Below, one piece after another: positions 10,958-16,840 of a DNA stretch of 64,000 nt (position 1 is the stretch's first letter; every line of letters starts with the position of its first letter). The notes beneath the pieces were generated by a model. It saw nothing but the letters and a program-made list of their open reading frames with translations. It had not been told where the DNA came from and did no database searches. Made by a program: the position numbers and the translations under genes. This DNA is from Olivibacter domesticus (GTDB lineage: Bacteria > Bacteroidota > Bacteroidia > Sphingobacteriales > Sphingobacteriaceae): the NCBI RefSeq assembly GCF_900109575.1, contig NZ_FOAF01000002.1, forward strand, positions 744,001 through 808,000. Direction: 5' to 3'.

Positions 10958-11881
10958 TCATTTCTGGATATTAATTGTAAATAGCCAAAACTGTTGCTGA
11001 TCCAGCGCTTGCTGAGGTTTGGAACCATAATTGAATGACACACCTACTGATAGATCCATATTAGTTGAATTTTCTGCAGCAGTTAAAAAAAAATAATCAA
11101 AACCTCCTCTAAAAAAATGTGTGTAATTTTCTTCATAGTCAGTTGTATTGATAAGGTCGTACCATTGGTCGTAATTAAAGGTGAAAGCCCATGTTTTTAT
11201 AGGTTCTGTCATAAGGTCTCTCCTTTTATTACCGGCTAAACTATATTGTACTTTTAACGTAGGTCTTAAAATAAAACCCTTTTCACCGTCATTCTTAGCA
11301 GAGAAATTTTGTTGTATTTCTGTACCGCCTGATAGAAGGGCAAAATGAATTAACCGTTTATTTGACGAGAGTGTATTCGTGGCCAAATTCAAACCTTTTT
11401 CGCCAGAACGGAAAGGTAATGCGTCTACGTTTAAGGCCAACGAATGAACAGTGTCTACTTTATCCATTATATATTTCAATGTGGGAGAAAAAAACCAGCG
11501 ATTAATGGTTGTACCCGCCTGATTTCTCTTCGCTTTAGCGTACCATACCGATGCAAATCCAGCTTGCCAATTATGTTGTTCTTTTTCTACCAATGTATTG
11601 CGGTGGTATTCACCAAAAATTTTCCCATCACCCCATTGCTCGAGGCTATAAGCAATACCTCCATCAATCAAAAAGGAATGATCTTTATTTTTTGGAAAAG
11701 TCATTTGAAATTGAACCGGCGCATTTTTGCCGTCCGGTGTATTGAATGATTGCCTAAGTTCTACCCGATCAAAAAAGGACTTTTTTTGCTCAGTAGTATC
11801 TTGGGCTGCTACAACAGTATATAAACAAGCTAAAGAAAAGATCGATACCAGATACCGGAAAAGGATTATAAGATCTGACAT
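10958..11881 (-). CDS. Predicted outer-membrane beta-barrel protein, unknown
   Basis: A 307-residue protein with a signal peptide (MSDLIILFRYLVSIFSLACLYTVVAA followed by QD). After it come alternating aromatic beta-strand segments with no recognisable catalytic motif, finishing in QQFWLFTINIQK. I do not recognise a family. The ATG at 11881 is chosen because it starts the signal peptide and leaves four bases after the astacin stop; a further-upstream ATG would overlap that gene. It is the last gene of the protease/nuclease operon and the only one with a classical export signal, so it may be a channel or surface partner for the other products. That role is inference. Confidence 0.6.
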   Translation of the reverse strand: MSDLIILFRYLVSIFSLACLYTVVAAQDTTEQKKSFFDRVELRQSFNTPDGKNAPVQFQMTFPKNKDHSFLIDGGIAYSLEQWGDGKIFGEYHRNTLVEKEQHNWQAGFASVWYAKAKRNQAGTTINRWFFSPTLKYIMDKVDTVHSLALNVDALPFRSGEKGLNLATNTLSSNKRLIHFALLSGGTEIQQNFSAKNDGEKGFILRPTLKVQYSLAGNKRRDLMTEPIKTWAFTFNYDQWYDLINTTDYEENYTHFFRGGFDYFFLTAAENSTNMDLSVGVSFNYGSKPQQALDQQQFWLFTINIQK

Positions 11882-11885
11882 ATTT

Positions 11886-13067
11886 TTATCCTTTTGTTTT
11901 CGTATTAACCATATCAATTACGTCCTTCACAATCCGACAATTGTTCAGCTCACTTTCCGTGAAGGATGCCGATGCTAAATAAGTTTTCACCAGTTCGTTC
12001 AAGAGTTCCGCGCAGAGATTATAGGCATAACTAGAGGGTAATAAGTTGCTAAGTTTTGCCTTATCCTCCAAGTTGTTTGGGTTTTCGCGGGCCTGCCCCG
12101 CTCCTATCAAAATGCATTTCTTGGCTTTATACTCCCTGCTTTCATCTTTCTCTACAAACAGTTTTTTATGACTGGTATCGTCCGTCAAATAAACAAGATA
12201 GCTATTCAAAAATTCTTCATTTAATTTAACATTTTTCCATCTTTTCAATGCTACTTTTAGGTTTTTTATGCGCTCTTTTCGTTGCTTTACAATACTATTT
12301 TTGCTAAATGGATATGCTCTTTGTGCCATCCGTTTATCTTCGTCGGACAAAGTAGTATTTTCAGGAACATAGCAAGGCGATGCTTCCTTACTCACGAACA
12401 TCCAAGCGGGAAAAGAATAATGCATAATCGATTCTCGATCATGGGGTGAATAGATCAACCCACCAGCAGCCATTTTTCTTAAATTATAATCGACGGTTTC
12501 TTTTGACCAATTATTGGGAGGCTCAGCCAAATATTTATACAAGGCTGGCCAATCAAAATCACAATCTGAAACAGGCGATTGATGTTCATGATGAAATCCT
12601 AATGCATGCCCAAATTCATGCAACACGATGGACTGCCAATTATCGGGTAGCTTTTTATCAAATCCTTCCAAGTTTAAACTTATCTCGCCTGGTATACAAA
12701 ATGCTTCATCAACGCTTTGCGTGCCCACCCACGACCAATAGCCAGATTCATCAAACCCAACTCTTATAGGAGAGAAGTCTTGAGCGTGCCATGTACGATA
12801 AGTATTCTTTTTGGAATCATACCCAAAATCAAAAACTATATTAGCATACTTTGACCACTCCGCCGCCGCATTGGCTATTAGTTTATGTAATACCGCATCC
12901 CCCCCTTTAAAACTCACTTTCAGCACCCCTACCTGCCATAGTTTTAAATCCTCCATAACCAATTCCATTTTTTTGGTTGGCTTTCTTTTAAAACGATTAG
13001 CTTCCTCCGCCTTTATTCGTTTAATTAAGTAGTCCGGATATCCTTCTATAAGTTGCTTTTTATTCAT
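11886..13067 (-). CDS. Astacin-like (M12A) zinc metalloprotease without signal peptide
   Basis: A 393-residue zinc endopeptidase. The catalytic motif HEFGHALGFHHE at residues 150-161 is the full astacin signature HExxHxxGFxHE, and SIMHYSFPAW (Met at 215, Tyr at 217) is the astacin Met-turn. The N-terminal catalytic subdomain begins around residue 40 (LKLWQVGVLKVSF). The remaining 150 C-terminal residues are lysine-rich and match nothing I know. There is no signal peptide: the N-terminus is charged (MNKKQLIEGYPDYLIKRIK), unlike most bacterial astacins, which are exported. It is five bases from the preceding two-TM gene and four from the barrel gene, so it is clearly in the operon. The target is unknown. 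Confidence 0.88.
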   Translation of the reverse strand: MNKKQLIEGYPDYLIKRIKAEEANRFKRKPTKKMELVMEDLKLWQVGVLKVSFKGGDAVLHKLIANAAAEWSKYANIVFDFGYDSKKNTYRTWHAQDFSPIRVGFDESGYWSWVGTQSVDEAFCIPGEISLNLEGFDKKLPDNWQSIVLHEFGHALGFHHEHQSPVSDCDFDWPALYKYLAEPPNNWSKETVDYNLRKMAAGGLIYSPHDRESIMHYSFPAWMFVSKEASPCYVPENTTLSDEDKRMAQRAYPFSKNSIVKQRKERIKNLKVALKRWKNVKLNEEFLNSYLVYLTDDTSHKKLFVEKDESREYKAKKCILIGAGQARENPNNLEDKAKLSNLLPSSYAYNLCAELLNELVKTYLASASFTESELNNCRIVKDVIDMVNTKTKG

Positions 13068-13072
13068 GCTGC

Positions 13073-13603
13073 TTATTTTTTCTTTGTTAATACTTTATAA
13101 GCGTCAATACTCTCTTTTATCGCTATAATCTTCTTACTTAGCGCTCGTTGTAATTCTTCGTCATTTGCTAATCTCGTCGCTTTGTTAGGGGCCGCTAATT
13201 CTTCTACTTCTTTTATCTTTTCATCGAGATGTTCTAAAAACTTAAGCGTTATCCCACTATTATTAATACTTAACTCCTGTAATTTAGGAAGTGCTATTAT
13301 AACAACTACAAATACAGAGGCGAGGAGAAAATAAGAATAGGTGGAATCTTTTTGAGAAAAATGCGCGCTATCGGCATCTTTCCTTTTGGCAGTAGTGGCC
13401 ATCTCTTTACTACTACTGACGGTTATGGTCCTTTTCTCTTTATTTAGTAAAGTATCTAATTTTTCTTCTCTGCTATAGGTAGAGTCGGTAGTTATCAGAG
13501 AAGGCGAGACATCTTTATCATGCTCATGGGGTGTGTTTACAAATACCGCATACACAAAGATGAATATAGGAAACACTAATAGAAAATAATAGTTTCTTTC
13601 CAT
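13073..13603 (-). CDS. Two-TM protein with cytoplasmic coiled coil, unknown
   Basis: A 176-residue protein. TM1 is residues 4-22 (YYFLLVFPIFIFVYAVFV). A Ser/Thr/Lys-rich loop of about 65 residues follows, then TM2 (about 89-105, YFLLASVFVVVIIALPKL), then SINNSGITLKFLEHLDEKIKEVEEL leading into a coiled coil. The topology predicted from charge is a periplasmic loop with a cytoplasmic coiled-coil tail. No family recognised. Short two-TM proteins with such a tail occur as membrane components in bacterial conflict loci, but that comparison is loose. It lies between the lipocalin-like gene (46 bases) and the astacin (five bases). A 16-base motif shared with the M43 upstream region precedes it. Confidence 0.6.
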   Translation of the reverse strand: MERNYYFLLVFPIFIFVYAVFVNTPHEHDKDVSPSLITTDSTYSREEKLDTLLNKEKRTITVSSSKEMATTAKRKDADSAHFSQKDSTYSYFLLASVFVVVIIALPKLQELSINNSGITLKFLEHLDEKIKEVEELAAPNKATRLANDEELQRALSKKIIAIKESIDAYKVLTKKK

Positions 13604-13619
13604 AACAATAGGTTTTTTC

Positions 13620-13635
13620 TACGGCAATTAAAGCG
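13620..13635 (-). promoter_or_regulatory. 16-base motif upstream of the two-TM gene (copy 1)
   Basis: Minus-strand CGCTTTAATTGCCGTA, found again with one change at 14905-14920 before the M43 gene. It may be a regulatory or RNA-level element of the operon; function unknown. Confidence 0.35.
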
Positions 13636-13649
13636 TCTCCTTCAGATCT

Positions 13650-13964
13650 TTAATTGTTTTTTTTAAGCACCAGCCTCTCGGCATTTACTTCCCTAATGGT
13701 GTATTGCTCCTGGTTTTTCTGATCGAAAGTTAAAATCAATTTATCCTCCTTCACTTGCCAAAAACCAGTAGTAGACTCAAGGGCATCCCCCCTTCCCGGA
13801 AAGGTATTTATCAACTTCCCTTCTTCCTCTAAAGCTATTTTATCTCTTCCCCTCGATCTTGGCATCACAAAACCTTCTGGACGATACACTTTTTCTTCAT
13901 CCGTATCTTCTTCATAAGAGTGAACCCACTTACGAACTATCACCGATTTATGCCGGTTATTCAT
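13650..13964 (-). CDS. Small lipocalin-like protein, unknown function
   Basis: A 104-residue protein with no signal peptide. The second half (TGFWQVKEDKLILTFDQKNQ, then EQYTIREVNAERLVLKKNN) has the strand pattern of small lipocalin-like domains, namely 'W-x-ad-g-kLil-f' followed by a final strand ending rLvLk. The N-terminal half contains charged stretches (YEEDTDEEKVY). Its start overlaps the end of the M43 metalloprotease by eight bases, so the two are translationally coupled. That tight coupling suggests a companion or inhibitor of the protease, but nothing in the sequence proves it. Confidence 0.6.
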   Translation of the reverse strand: MNNRHKSVIVRKWVHSYEEDTDEEKVYRPEGFVMPRSRGRDKIALEEEGKLINTFPGRGDALESTTGFWQVKEDKLILTFDQKNQEQYTIREVNAERLVLKKNN

Positions 13965-14868
13965 TTTCTACAACTGGTATATTACGTAGCAAAGGCGCCC
14001 TTGGGCCTAAAAGTGTGGCTTTCATGCGATATGCCTGTCCTTTCGTAAACATAAACATACTATCGTCATCCACATAATCCATGTAATTCATAAACATATC
14101 CCCATGGGGAGCATTAGCGCATGAAACCGTTGGAAAAGTGGGTTTGTTATAATTTGGACCAAGCTGATTGGGTGTATCGTCTACATAGTCTGAATCATCA
14201 CAGGAGTTGCTTCTTCCATCTCCAAAAATATGCGACAAATTAAGGTAGTGTCCTATCTCATGGGTAGTGGTTCTGCCTAGGTTAAAAGGTGCTTCCGCTG
14301 TGCCTAAAGTACCAAATGCCCGATAATCAATTACAACACCATCCGTTTCTGGCGGGCCACCAGGGAACTGGGCATATCCTAGCAGCGAATTTTCCAAATT
14401 GCACACCCAAATATTAAGATAGCTCTCTGTAGGCCAGGGATCTTTTCCTCCCTTGCTGCTACTTTTAATAGTATTATCCGAACTAAATTGAAGTAAATCT
14501 GTGGCCGTTCTCGTAATACCGTCCGGGGCCAGCTCAAAATTAATAAATGTATCTGCCGCCAGATCATCCCACACATTTGGTACTTGATCCCGATCTTTAT
14601 TCGTTCTTCTAAAATCGTTGTTTAACACTTCGAGCTGACTCAAAATCTGTTCGTCAGAAATATTTTCTAGTGCCTCATGGTACACCACATGTACTACCAC
14701 ATAAATTCTGACTGGATCAACAAATCGTAATGATTCTCTGCCAGTTAACATAGTGTTAATATCGCTTTCAATCTTAGCTTGTGCCTTTCTATATGCCGGA
14801 AACATATCTGCCTGATGATTAAACACTTCCATTGTGGCACAATATCTTTTTTTTCTGATGGGTTCCAT
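13957..14868 (-). CDS. M43-family (pappalysin/cytophagalysin) zinc metalloprotease, leaderless
   Basis: A 303-residue zinc endopeptidase. The active site HEIGHYLNLSH (His203, Glu204, His207, His213) is the extended M43 motif. CDDSDYVDDTPNQ downstream and the Met-turn FMNYMDYVDD (about 258-267) are also family marks. Residues RYCATMEV (Cys10) match the cysteine-switch propeptide of M43 enzymes, in which the Cys caps the zinc until the N-terminus is removed. Unusually, the cysteine switch is at the extreme N-terminus with no signal peptide in front, so either it is exported by a non-Sec route or it works in the cytoplasm after activation. It overlaps the lipocalin-like gene by eight bases. Confidence 0.9.
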   Translation of the reverse strand: MEPIRKKRYCATMEVFNHQADMFPAYRKAQAKIESDINTMLTGRESLRFVDPVRIYVVVHVVYHEALENISDEQILSQLEVLNNDFRRTNKDRDQVPNVWDDLAADTFINFELAPDGITRTATDLLQFSSDNTIKSSSKGGKDPWPTESYLNIWVCNLENSLLGYAQFPGGPPETDGVVIDYRAFGTLGTAEAPFNLGRTTTHEIGHYLNLSHIFGDGRSNSCDDSDYVDDTPNQLGPNYNKPTFPTVSCANAPHGDMFMNYMDYVDDDSMFMFTKGQAYRMKATLLGPRAPLLRNIPVVENE

Positions 14869-14904
14869 GATTAAATTATTTAAGCGTACGAAGAAGAAGT
14901 CTTA

Positions 14905-14920
14905 TACGGCAAGTAAAGCG
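14905..14920 (-). promoter_or_regulatory. 16-base motif upstream of the M43 gene (copy 2)
   Basis: Minus-strand CGCTTTACTTGCCGTA, 15 of 16 identical to 13620-13635, lying 37 bases before the M43 start. The rest of the 124-base gap shows no other structure I can support. Confidence 0.35.
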
Positions 14921-14992
14921 GTCAACGGCTAATACATAAAAGATTTATAGTATGAAGTTACTTGTTTTTCTCTTAATATTCAATTCTAATTT

Positions 14993-16840
14993 CTAAATAG
15001 CATCACTAAAATTTAAGCTACCACACAAAGAAGGAAAATCAATAAAGGGATTTCTATTTCCCTGCATTAAAAAAATTTCGCGATTGCGGTGTTTTTCGTA
15101 AAGTGAAATGGGTTCCTTCTGTGCCCATTCTTTCAACATATCCATATCACGTTGTTTATAAACCTGAATTGTTTTCGGATATCGCACAAAAAAGTATAGC
15201 ACGGCCCGCGCCACCACGCCTTTATTCCGCTCCGGCTCAAACAACTTGTTTTCCATATTTCCACATTCATTCCTAACTTTTTCCACTGGCTCCAGCGGGT
15301 CAGGGTCGTAGTTTTCAAAATCAAAATAAGGATAATTGTTTCGGAAACTGTTGCAGCCCGACTCACAGGCAAAAAGATGATGTAAATCTCCCCGCATTGG
15401 TTCCTGCTTGTTAAACCAAGATTGGCACACCACATGTTCACAATTATATGGAAACATGGCTTCTAATTTGTCAATCTCCAAGTTATAGGCTTCTCTTTCC
15501 ATCTCTTTCCCAGTTTTTTCTATTTCAACAAATTTCAGCCTCCTTTCTGCATCCACCCTTTCGTCTGCCAACATTAACTCCTGCGCGGTAAATTCTTTGC
15601 CGGAATAAATACTTCTAAGTAAACCATCAGGATGGAGATCTATTTTAGGATATACATACTTCGATGGGTTATAATTGTGATGTGATGTATGAGTATCCTT
15701 TAGTAATTGATGCAATACATCAACTGTTACATTTTCAATTACCGAAATGTCTTTATAGTAACGGCTGATATCCTGATGATCACTCGCTTCGGGATAATAT
15801 ATTTCATTGCCCAATTTCGTACGACTTATCCCCATTGATTTCTCGATAACTTCCACATCAGAAATTGGTGAAAAATGATCCAACAAAAAGGGAAAGCTCG
15901 TTGCCGCCTGTGTTGTAATATCATATATGATACTGCTAACCCTCACCCCTTCGTTTTCTACCCAATCTATTTGCAGCTCGCCCTGTGATTTATCCCATGG
16001 GAGACCATCAATATTTAGTATTTTTCCGTCTGGATTATATTTGGGAATTCCTGCGTGATGTAGAGCCACTACTTCCCATTTGTCATTAAACACCGGCGCA
16101 CCAGAGGTACCCTGTTTTGTGTCGGTCATATAACGTATGAATTTAGGCATATCCAAATTCGTCACCTGATTCTCTCTCAATGCCACCTTTTTCATTTTAC
16201 CATCCGGATGCTGGATGATGGATACATAGTTGCCCTCTTTCGTTTTACCAAGATTAGGATTCAACGTTAAAAAGGCAAATTCACTTATATTATGCAAACC
16301 GTCGGCAGTAATTGACTCTAGCGCTATAATACTATAGTCTAGCTCTTCATTGGTATAAAACAACCGACTGCAATCAAATCTAAAATACTTCACCTGTTTG
16401 GGTAATCCGTTTGTTCCCTTTTCATAGTCAAACGCTGCATAGGAAAGTCTTCCATAATCCGCATTAGGCAATACATGGTTATTTGTGATGACAATAAACG
16501 GGGCGATTAAGAAACCTGTTCCATAGCCTTCTTCTCCATCTGGCGAAGCAATAGTAATACGGCAGACCGATCTGCCAGCCACTACCCCCATTTCCAAATA
16601 ATTCACATCTAATATATCATCTCCTTTTATTACCCGCTCACGCAGCAATCGGTCATTGATAAACTGGTTTAGCGTAAGATCATTTTGTTGGAGATAACGA
16701 TTCATTTGACGTGGCACCACCACCCTGTTGTCTGTGCTTACTTTCATTTGCGGTAGAGGGGGTTCTCCGAATACCGTCTTATTTACAGACCTTTGCTTGA
16801 CAAGTTCAATCTGCTTAATAAATTGCATCGATATTTTCAT
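14993..16840 (-). CDS. Fusion of trypsin-like serine protease and endonuclease I
   Basis: A 615-residue two-enzyme protein. Residues about 85-265 are a V8/trypsin-like protease: His122 in ITNNHV, Asp168 in EELDYSII, and nucleophile Ser246 in KQGTSGAPVF. Residues about 375-605 are an endonuclease I (PF04231) domain: NCEHVV with Glu468/His469, DLHHLF with His487/488, CNSFRNNYP, FEPERNKGVVARAVLYFFVRYP cut into its ARA and RYP elements, and the terminal GNRNPFID signature at 594-601. A charged linker (about 415-460) joins them. There is no signal peptide, unlike free-standing endonuclease I. It is the first gene of a six-gene operon with two metalloproteases. An obvious reading is a protease-gated or proteolytically released nuclease, but this is inference. 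Confidence 0.88.
   Translation of the reverse strand: MKISMQFIKQIELVKQRSVNKTVFGEPPLPQMKVSTDNRVVVPRQMNRYLQQNDLTLNQFINDRLLRERVIKGDDILDVNYLEMGVVAGRSVCRITIASPDGEEGYGTGFLIAPFIVITNNHVLPNADYGRLSYAAFDYEKGTNGLPKQVKYFRFDCSRLFYTNEELDYSIIALESITADGLHNISEFAFLTLNPNLGKTKEGNYVSIIQHPDGKMKKVALRENQVTNLDMPKFIRYMTDTKQGTSGAPVFNDKWEVVALHHAGIPKYNPDGKILNIDGLPWDKSQGELQIDWVENEGVRVSSIIYDITTQAATSFPFLLDHFSPISDVEVIEKSMGISRTKLGNEIYYPEASDHQDISRYYKDISVIENVTVDVLHQLLKDTHTSHHNYNPSKYVYPKIDLHPDGLLRSIYSGKEFTAQELMLADERVDAERRLKFVEIEKTGKEMEREAYNLEIDKLEAMFPYNCEHVVCQSWFNKQEPMRGDLHHLFACESGCNSFRNNYPYFDFENYDPDPLEPVEKVRNECGNMENKLFEPERNKGVVARAVLYFFVRYPKTIQVYKQRDMDMLKEWAQKEPISLYEKHRNREIFLMQGNRNPFIDFPSLCGSLNFSDAI

What the first reader, a model, noticed from the sequence alone, without database searches (positions are those of the whole stretch)
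10958..16840. Operon of three signal-less hydrolases (trypsin-endonuclease I, M43, astacin) with membrane and small partner genes
Six same-strand genes, most with overlaps or gaps of 4-46 bases (124 after the first): a protease-nuclease fusion, an M43 protease, a lipocalin-like small protein, a two-TM coiled-coil protein, an astacin, and a barrel with a true signal peptide. The three hydrolases have zinc or serine catalytic residues intact yet no Sec/Tat signal, so they either act in the cytoplasm (a self-limiting or anti-invader system with protease activation of the nuclease) or leave by a non-classical secretion device. The set is not one I recognise as a described system.
Basis: partly seen in the sequence, partly recalled or inferred. 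Interest (0 to 1): 0.7.

Follow-up and report, generated by a model that had tools for sequence, protein, structure and literature searches.

The report
Internal protease-nuclease operon with adaptor domain
A soil-type bacterium carries a rare, conserved set of six genes encoding unsecreted protein- and DNA-cutting enzymes, probably a locked self-destruct or defence kit, tied by a small adaptor-like domain to an outer-membrane barrel; it resembles a predicted but untested class of bacterial conflict systems.

Summary
Six minus-strand genes lie in tight order (gaps 124, -8, 46, 5, 4 bases), and no earlier start gives the three hydrolases a signal peptide. Four genomes carry five or six of the genes at one locus. 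(2) The signal-less M43 protease and the 'lipocalin-like' gene are neighbours at 8 of 8 sites of the latter, reaching Rhizobium, Azospirillum and Burkholderia. (3) In Bacillota the same nuclease kind follows an S8 peptidase, of intracellular-subtilisin type in 2 of 3 plasmids. (4) No contractile-sheath gene in 5 genomes. Best reading: a cytoplasmic protease-gated nuclease locus, a Bacteroidota variant of the predicted trypsin-NucA 'System 3' (PMC7159879), with a new candidate adaptor and an outer-membrane partner. Function is inferred, not shown.

The parts
14993..16840 (-). Trypsin-endonuclease I fusion, 615 aa, no signal peptide
   Evidence: Pfam Trypsin_2 and Endonuclease_1; relatives 53-66% identical; 5 upstream codons only
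16061..16522 (-). Trypsin_2 domain, residues 107-260; H122, D168, S246 invariant in 5 sequences
15032..15460 (-). Endonuclease I domain, residues 461-603
   Evidence: PDB matches include endonuclease I structures
13957..14868 (-). M43 (ulilysin-like) protease, 303 aa, keeps the pro-segment with Cys10, no signal peptide
13650..13964 (-). Small partner of M43 ('lipocalin-like'), 104 aa, overlaps M43 by 8 bases
   Evidence: next to a signal-less M43 at 8 of 8 sites found
13073..13603 (-). Two-TM protein with helical/coiled C-terminus, 176 aa
   Evidence: hydrophobic N-terminus, second TM and coil read by eye; relatives in 2 of the 3 other complete loci
11886..13067 (-). Astacin-like protease with C-terminal ACP-like domain, 393 aa, no signal peptide
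   Evidence: Foldseek myroilysin for the catalytic part
11895..12140 (-). ACP-like (pseudo-ACP) domain, residues about 310-391
   Evidence: pLDDT 82-97 per ten-residue block from 311 to 390; carrier proteins among the Foldseek matches from rank 7, TMt up to 0.79 but E 0.033 or weaker; shared with other loci
10958..11881 (-). Predicted outer-membrane beta-barrel with Sec-type signal peptide (ATG start)
   Evidence: low-confidence barrel model

Best explanation
This is an accessory cytoplasmic conflict or self-destruction locus. Shown: the enzymes lack export signals, keep their catalytic residues, and are inherited together. Inferred: the trypsin-like domain gates the endonuclease I domain (cutting its own linker or an inhibitor) so that cytoplasmic DNA is degraded only on a trigger. 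The M43 enzyme is stored as a cysteine-switch zymogen beside its small dedicated partner, most likely an inhibitor or folding partner, and with the astacin forms a second protease arm. The small two-TM protein anchors or senses at the inner membrane. The ACP-like domain, which sits on the astacin here and in L032, on the nuclease in two relatives and alone elsewhere, acts as a protein-interaction adaptor, not as an acyl carrier. The coupled barrel is the envelope-side part, either a trigger sensor or an exit/permeabilising element.
For: Co-inheritance: fusion, M43, lipocalin-like gene and barrel together in 4 loci, with two layouts (one strand, or divergent). M43 orthologues score 616-663 bits in exactly the 4 of 120 genomes that have the full-length fusion; the next M43 scores 347. 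The lipocalin-like gene was found in 3 of 300 order genomes, all with the locus. Barrel and trypsin-nuclease fusions: 9 and 8 of 300 genomes, 4 shared, Fisher p 2.5e-5 (about 4e-4 if the two same-genus genomes count once; relatedness not otherwise corrected). In Pedobacter MR2016-24 a trypsin-NucA fusion lies divergent from a free pseudo-ACP plus barrel, with a YLATT (2.1e-25) membrane protein. Cytoplasm. Cys10 aligns with the pro-ulilysin cysteine; the latency role of that motif in mirolysin is from passages of PMC6949598. A trypsin-gated nuclease is shown by experiment for an unrelated nuclease (PMC12799240; outline and part 1 of 6 seen).
Against: No direct evidence of immunity: PADLOC gave only trypsin-level matches for the fusion (RT-Protease_XI 2.6e-09, LmuA 1e-06, PDC-S45 2.3e-06) and weak ones otherwise (ThsB 0.024 for the astacin protein, PDC-M53A 0.0012 for the free domain of L042); no NTPase or recognised sensor among the six genes. 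A Sec-exported barrel is hard to fit to a purely cytoplasmic device. M43 appears to keep one of the two disulfide cysteine pairs of secreted relatives (alignment). The fusion also occurs alone (L031), and 4 of 5 trypsin-NucA fusion loci opened in the order lack the barrel. Only 4 of 10 plasmid records with an M43 match have the small partner. The carrier-protein matches of the adaptor domain do not reach E 0.001.
Confidence: 0.5

Rival explanations
1. The hydrolases are exported or released without signal peptides: through the barrel and an unknown inner-membrane route with the ACP-like domain as the ticket, or simply by lysis of part of the population, to digest competitors or nutrients.
For: A signal-peptide barrel is directly downstream of the ACP-like domain in 12 of 12 barrel loci. 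M43 relatives are secreted zymogens (PMC6949598 abstract), and the window M43 appears to keep one disulfide pair and the switch cysteine. The astacin protein has a weak match (E 0.0014, below cut-off) to LegP, a signal-less injected protease of another bacterium (that LegP lacks a signal is recalled). Low-confidence Foldseek matches of the barrel include FapF, but equally plain porins, none at E 0.001. Signal-less M43 genes in a Priestia and one Rhizobium plasmid sit near M28 or M4 peptidases.
Against: Phage_sheath_1 and VipB in 0 of 5 genomes; other secretion machines were not searched. No transporter among the six genes. Partner S8 proteases of the nuclease are closest to intracellular subtilisins in 2 of 3 Bacillota plasmids.
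Confidence: 0.22
2. Ordinary cytoplasmic turnover: a starvation or dying-cell recycling set of proteases and nuclease, without antagonism or immunity, like intracellular subtilisin in Bacillus.
For: An intracellular-type subtilisin precedes this kind of nuclease in two Bacillota plasmids. Neighbours in the window are transport-type and sulfatase genes.
Against: Patchy: absent from 2 of 4 other same-genus genomes (G002, G003); full-length fusion in 4 of 120 relatives. Trypsin-nuclease matches also occur on plasmids of other phyla (103 of 72,556 records match, 1 over at least 80% of the query). A housekeeping role would predict wider retention.
Confidence: 0.15
3. Two or three unrelated cassettes (M43 pair; fusion plus TM; pseudo-ACP plus barrel) that merely sit together.
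For: Each cassette occurs without the others elsewhere: M43 pair in alpha- and betaproteobacterial plasmids, fusion alone in L031, pseudo-ACP plus barrel without a trypsin-nuclease in the stretches held of L042, L106, L107, L108, L109 (L109 is only 3.7 kb).
Against: The three cassettes meet in 4 loci with different layouts, the ACP-like domain is fused to the hydrolases themselves, and a trypsin-nuclease meets pseudo-ACP plus barrel again in L092.
Confidence: 0.1

Closest known systems
System 3: trypsin coupled to NucA-like endonuclease, Kaur et al. 2020 (PMC7159879, that section read in full; other passages)
   Same: Trypsin-like peptidase fused to a nuclease, further peptidases nearby, membrane segments, predicted proteolytic cascade releasing the nuclease; small adaptor domains shared between effectors.
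   Different: Here endonuclease I (PF04231) replaces NucA; M43 and astacin replace S8; an ACP-like domain stands where EAD1 is described; an outer-membrane barrel and an M43 partner gene are added; host is Bacteroidota. That system is itself a prediction.
Nuclease-protease pairs in Hachiman, AVAST, Lamassu, DRT (PMC12799240; outline and part 1 of 6 read)
   Same: Trypsin-like protease controls a nuclease; shown to unlock a pro-nuclease.
   Different: There the nuclease is an MBL-fold protein from a separate gene and the protease is fused to a defence enzyme; here protease and EndoI are one chain and no such enzyme is present.
Ulilysin and mirolysin, M43 pappalysins (PMC6949598, passages; PDB match)
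   Same: Catalytic core, pro-segment with switch cysteine.
   Different: No signal peptide, a dedicated small partner gene, one of the two disulfide pairs apparently missing in the window protein.
Acyl carrier proteins
   Same: Predicted fold of the C-terminal domain (TMt up to 0.79).
   Different: No invariant serine at the carrier position (motif recalled): 1 of 10 aligned domains has Ser there, or 5 of 10 if the register is moved by one; identity to the listed carrier rows at most 22%.
Intracellular subtilisin next to endonuclease in Bacillota plasmids (L145, L147)
   Same: Endonuclease I of the same kind next to a cytoplasmic-type protease.
   Different: Separate genes, S8 instead of trypsin; a third plasmid (L152) has an S8 of another type.

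Membership tests
Kaur System 3 (trypsin-NucA) | Trypsin-like peptidase coupled to a nuclease, often fused | tested here: met
Kaur System 3 (trypsin-NucA) | Nuclease of NucA (Endonuclease_NS) type | tested here: not met
   Window has Endonuclease_1; NucA versions lie in L092, L123-L126
Kaur System 3 (trypsin-NucA) | Additional peptidase(s) in the same unit | tested here: met
   M43 and astacin, of other families than the published S8
Kaur System 3 (trypsin-NucA) | TM segments | tested here: met
   Separate two-TM gene in the window; YLATT protein in L092
Kaur System 3 (trypsin-NucA) | EAD1 adaptor (a subset only) | tested here: not met
   No effector-associated domain among Pfam hits (that Pfam holds such models is recalled); ACP-like domain instead
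Protease-activated nuclease pairs (Tuck 2025) | MBL-fold nuclease encoded next to the protease | tested here: not met
   no MBL family among the hits of the six proteins
Protease-activated nuclease pairs (Tuck 2025) | Proteolytic activation of the nuclease | not testable with these tools
   needs biochemistry
eCIS or T6SS cargo | Contractile sheath genes in the genome | tested here: not met
   PF04984 0 of 5, PF05943 0 of 5; controls ring in 3 and 1 of 14 genomes
T9SS or Sec-secreted proteases | N-terminal signal peptide | tested here: not met
   (upstream stops and hydrophobicity; no dedicated predictor)
M43 pappalysins | Zinc motif and switch cysteine | tested here: met
M43 pappalysins | Secretion as a zymogen | tested here: not met
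   no signal peptide; latency itself not tested
Acyl carrier protein | Four-helix ACP fold | tested here: met
   predicted structure only; best carrier match E 0.033, TMt 0.79
Acyl carrier protein | Conserved phosphopantetheinylated serine | tested here: not met
   Ser in 1 of 10 (Asp/Glu in 6 of 10), or 5 of 10 in the neighbouring column; the window protein has Ser in both columns
Lipocalin_4 | Full-length domain match | tested here: inconclusive
   only profile positions 47-89 of 89; L032 relative below cut-off, Rhizobium relative no hit at 0.001

The most novel reading that the evidence does not exclude
The ACP-like domain is a new class of adaptor that recruits interchangeable cytoplasmic hydrolases (trypsin-EndoI, astacin, and in trans trypsin-NucA) into one pathway with an outer-membrane barrel and, in relatives, a dedicated membrane protein-histidine kinase-response regulator module: an envelope-to-cytoplasm self-destruct circuit not described in the papers searched, in which events at the outer membrane unlock zymogen proteases and a DNase.
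Probability: 0.28. Interest if true: 0.82.

Novelty: new variant of a known kind. Interest (0 to 1): 0.6.

Why it matters
Protease-gated nucleases have recently been shown to be a recurring immune mechanism (PMC12799240). This locus would add a single-chain version with another nuclease fold, a cysteine-switch zymogen kept inside the cell with its own partner gene, and a carrier-protein fold turned into an adaptor. It makes concrete, cheap tests possible: protease-dead and nuclease-dead fusions, the M43-partner pair, and whether the pseudo-ACP binds other parts.

Tried and rejected
Contractile injection (eCIS, T6SS) export: sheath families in 0 of 5 genomes. Hidden signal peptides: excluded by in-frame stops. 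Known defence family: PADLOC gave trypsin-level hits only. NCBIfam: only matches below the curated cut-offs, among them AbsR1 (7e-26) and LegP (0.0014) for the astacin protein and metzin_BF0631 (1.5e-15) for M43. Prophage or plasmid origin: the barrel has no match in plasmids; the fusion has one partial EndoI match in one phage record; the lipocalin-like gene none in viral contigs (135 stretches matched a pattern, none confirmed). Lipocalin-like protein as a known fold: PDB profile search gave 6 chance-level matches, best E 0.091. A potempin-like inhibitor role (small protein beside mirolysin in Tannerella) is recalled; one search was seen as a listing only and is no test. ACP likeness by sequence alone: no PDB match for profile A8, one weak Pfam PP-binding hit, E 0.079, for the L109 protein; it rests on the predicted structure. 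Barrel model too weak (pLDDT 52) to choose porin or secretion barrel. Astacin homologues on plasmids: 3 of 16 matching records opened (H35, H37, H45); no annotated trypsin-nuclease neighbour. Promoter scan: 13 sites against 21.9 expected; Bacteroidota-type pattern 2 against 4.1 expected, neither in the locus; terminator-like sites 9 against 4.9 +/- 2.2, none at the operon end. A caspase-like look of a small L042 protein, by eye, was wrong: it is DUF6642.
Full report
The locus. Six ORFs on the minus strand between 16840 and 10958 encode, in order, a trypsin-endonuclease I fusion (615 aa), an M43 protease (303), a small 'lipocalin-like' protein (104), a two-TM protein (176), an astacin-like protease (393) and a predicted outer-membrane barrel. 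The gaps are 124 bases, an 8-base overlap, 46, 5 and 4 bases (the last with the ATG at 11881). Upstream of the listed starts of genes 1-5 there are only 5, 11, 1, 5 and 9 codons before an in-frame stop, and the hydrolases have no hydrophobic N-terminus. Catalytic residues are invariant among the aligned relatives. The flanking genes checked are a TonB-dependent receptor, a PepSY_TM protein and a sulfatase.

Relatives of the whole set. Of 120 relatives searched with the fusion, 25 match, but only 4 over both domains: the source genome, two of the same genus (G001, G004) and Pedobacter quisquiliarum (G052); two other same-genus genomes (G002, G003) have none. A scan of genome contigs gave two named loci, P. 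quisquiliarum (L032) and Pedobacter sp. MR2016-24 (L031). In four of the five loci the fusion lies beside M43, the lipocalin-like gene and the barrel, five or six genes in all: the TM gene is in three of these four, the astacin in two; in L031 the fusion is alone. In G001 and G004 the M43-lipocalin-TM unit is divergent from the fusion-barrel unit, so the association survives rearrangement. M43 orthologues (616-663 bits) occur in exactly these 4 of 120 genomes, while 47 of 120 have some M43 at 1e-50 and the next best scores 347 bits. The lipocalin-like gene was found in 3 of 300 genomes of the order, each with the locus.

The C-terminal domain. In G001 and G004 the fusion has about 100 extra residues that match the end of the window's astacin protein. 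Searching with the barrel led to a locus in another family (G261, L042) where a free 131-aa protein with the same end lies directly upstream of the barrel. The same was found in Pedobacter MR2016-24 (L092), in L106, L107, L108, L109 and in two contigs of G579 (L110, L111): with the window and L032-L034, 12 of 12 barrel loci, 5 of them with a 4-base overlap of the two genes. A model of the astacin protein gives this domain high confidence (82-97 pLDDT per ten residues, 311-390) although the protease part is poorly modelled (mean of the whole 54.7). Foldseek finds myroilysin (astacin) for the first part; of 124 matches 50 were shown, and ranks 7-50 are nearly all acyl or peptidyl carrier proteins or enzymes holding such domains (best E 0.033, TMt 0.79); only the 6 myroilysin rows reach E 0.001. 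At the carrier-serine position (motif recalled) 1 of 10 aligned domains has Ser and 6 of 10 Asp or Glu; if the register is moved by one, 5 of 10 have Ser. Hence 'pseudo-ACP', with that caveat. Sequence searches alone did not show the likeness (one Pfam PP-binding hit at 0.079). A profile of the domain finds it in 11 of 14 chosen genomes; all 11 also have the barrel, and the 3 without it (G002, G003, G493) had no barrel hit. Most matched copies were rows of the profile, so the independent parts are the position directly upstream of the barrel and one new copy, in G536, beside a membrane protein, a histidine kinase and a response regulator without a barrel.

Wider network. In L092 the pseudo-ACP plus barrel pair is divergent from a trypsin-NucA fusion (716 aa), followed by a YLATT-family membrane protein (2.1e-25) and a protein with sub-cut-off alpha/beta-hydrolase hits. 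Four barrel loci (L042, L106, L107, L108) have a neighbouring membrane protein-histidine kinase-LuxR-type response regulator set; kinase and regulator are confirmed by Pfam in three, in L107 only the regulator was checked and the kinase is split in two ORFs. The same kind of set lies beside a trypsin-NucA fusion in L125, at what looks by eye like the same chromosomal place as L106 and L107 (flanking genes). In 300 genomes of the order, 9 have the barrel, 8 a trypsin-nuclease fusion and 4 both; Fisher p 2.5e-5, or about 4e-4 with the same-genus pair counted once; shared ancestry is not otherwise removed (a ninth hit, G506, matched only the nuclease part and was left out of the 8). Against the link: of 5 trypsin-NucA fusion loci opened in the order (L092, L123-L126) only L092 has a barrel, a sixth locus (L127) has separate trypsin and NucA genes and none, and the two genomes outside the order with such fusions (G277, G327) have no barrel hit. 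G277 has a trypsin-exo/endonuclease-phosphatase-EndoI triple fusion.

Two portable pairs. In plasmids the M43 query matches 10 records, and the lipocalin-like query 4 (two near-identical Rhizobium genes, Azospirillum, Burkholderia), all 4 next to a signal-less M43 of the same kind; with the 4 Bacteroidota loci that is 8 of 8 sites of the small gene, but only 4 of 10 M43 records. In Burkholderia the small gene precedes M43. The endonuclease part of the fusion finds separate endonucleases directly after an S8 peptidase in all three Bacillota plasmids opened for it; against the PDB, two of these peptidases are closest to intracellular serine proteases (6.9e-128 and 9.5e-122), the third (L152) to another subtilisin-like protease. 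Full trypsin-EndoI fusions also exist in a Streptomyces plasmid and, with an exo/endonuclease-phosphatase domain between, in a Mesorhizobium plasmid.

Mechanism. I read the locus as a cytoplasmic, protease-gated DNase device. The steps shown are: no export signals, intact active sites, joint inheritance, purifying selection (dN/dS 0.05-0.12 for four genes at high dS), and no contractile-sheath gene in 5 genomes. Inferred steps: the trypsin domain unlocks the nuclease; M43 is held by its pro-segment cysteine, as published for mirolysin (PMC6949598, passages), and by its partner; the pseudo-ACP is an adaptor; the barrel is the envelope part. What sets it off, and whether it serves phage defence, kin competition or orderly death, cannot be told here.

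Known or new. The nearest published idea is 'System 3' of Kaur et al. 2020, trypsin with NucA, predicted to fire through a proteolytic cascade, with EAD1 as adaptor in some (PMC7159879, that section read in full). The follow-up states the adaptor principle (PMC8195603, passages). Protease-activated nucleases have been shown experimentally with an MBL nuclease (PMC12799240, outline and part 1 of 6). The window locus fails strict membership of each (nuclease type, adaptor type, fused defence enzyme). The listings of my seven paper searches showed no description of a trypsin-EndoI fusion with M43, or of an ACP-like adaptor beside a barrel; most subscription papers are not held. I therefore call it a new variant of a known, mostly predicted, kind.

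Noticed in passing
L145:4973-6744, L147:10525-12433, L152:6707-8849: In Bacillota plasmids an endonuclease I directly follows an S8 peptidase; two of the three peptidases are closest to intracellular subtilisins, the third is of another S8 type.
   Followed up: partly
L148:7989-9460, L149:7968-9434, L150, L151: Signal-less M43 plus a small partner gene is also a pair in alpha- and betaproteobacterial plasmids.
   Followed up: partly
L073:7994-10738 and L143:7779-10550: One protein joins trypsin, an endonuclease/exonuclease/phosphatase domain and endonuclease I, in a Bacteroidota genome and a Mesorhizobium plasmid.
   Followed up: partly
L106, L107, L125: What looks like one chromosomal place carries either a pseudo-ACP plus barrel or a trypsin-NucA fusion next to the same kind of sensor-kinase-regulator genes, like exchangeable cassettes.
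   Followed up: partly
L127:6312-11388: A cluster with two separate Trypsin_2 proteins and an Endonuclease_NS protein, closer to the published System 3.
   Followed up: partly
L144:5284-13609: In a Rhizobium plasmid a trypsin-NucA-like fusion lies with genes annotated S1/P1 nuclease, phospholipase D-like and CHAT domain.
   Followed up: no
L042:14319-14876: A DUF6642 protein (6.7e-83) lies next to the regulator genes of the G261 locus.
   Followed up: no
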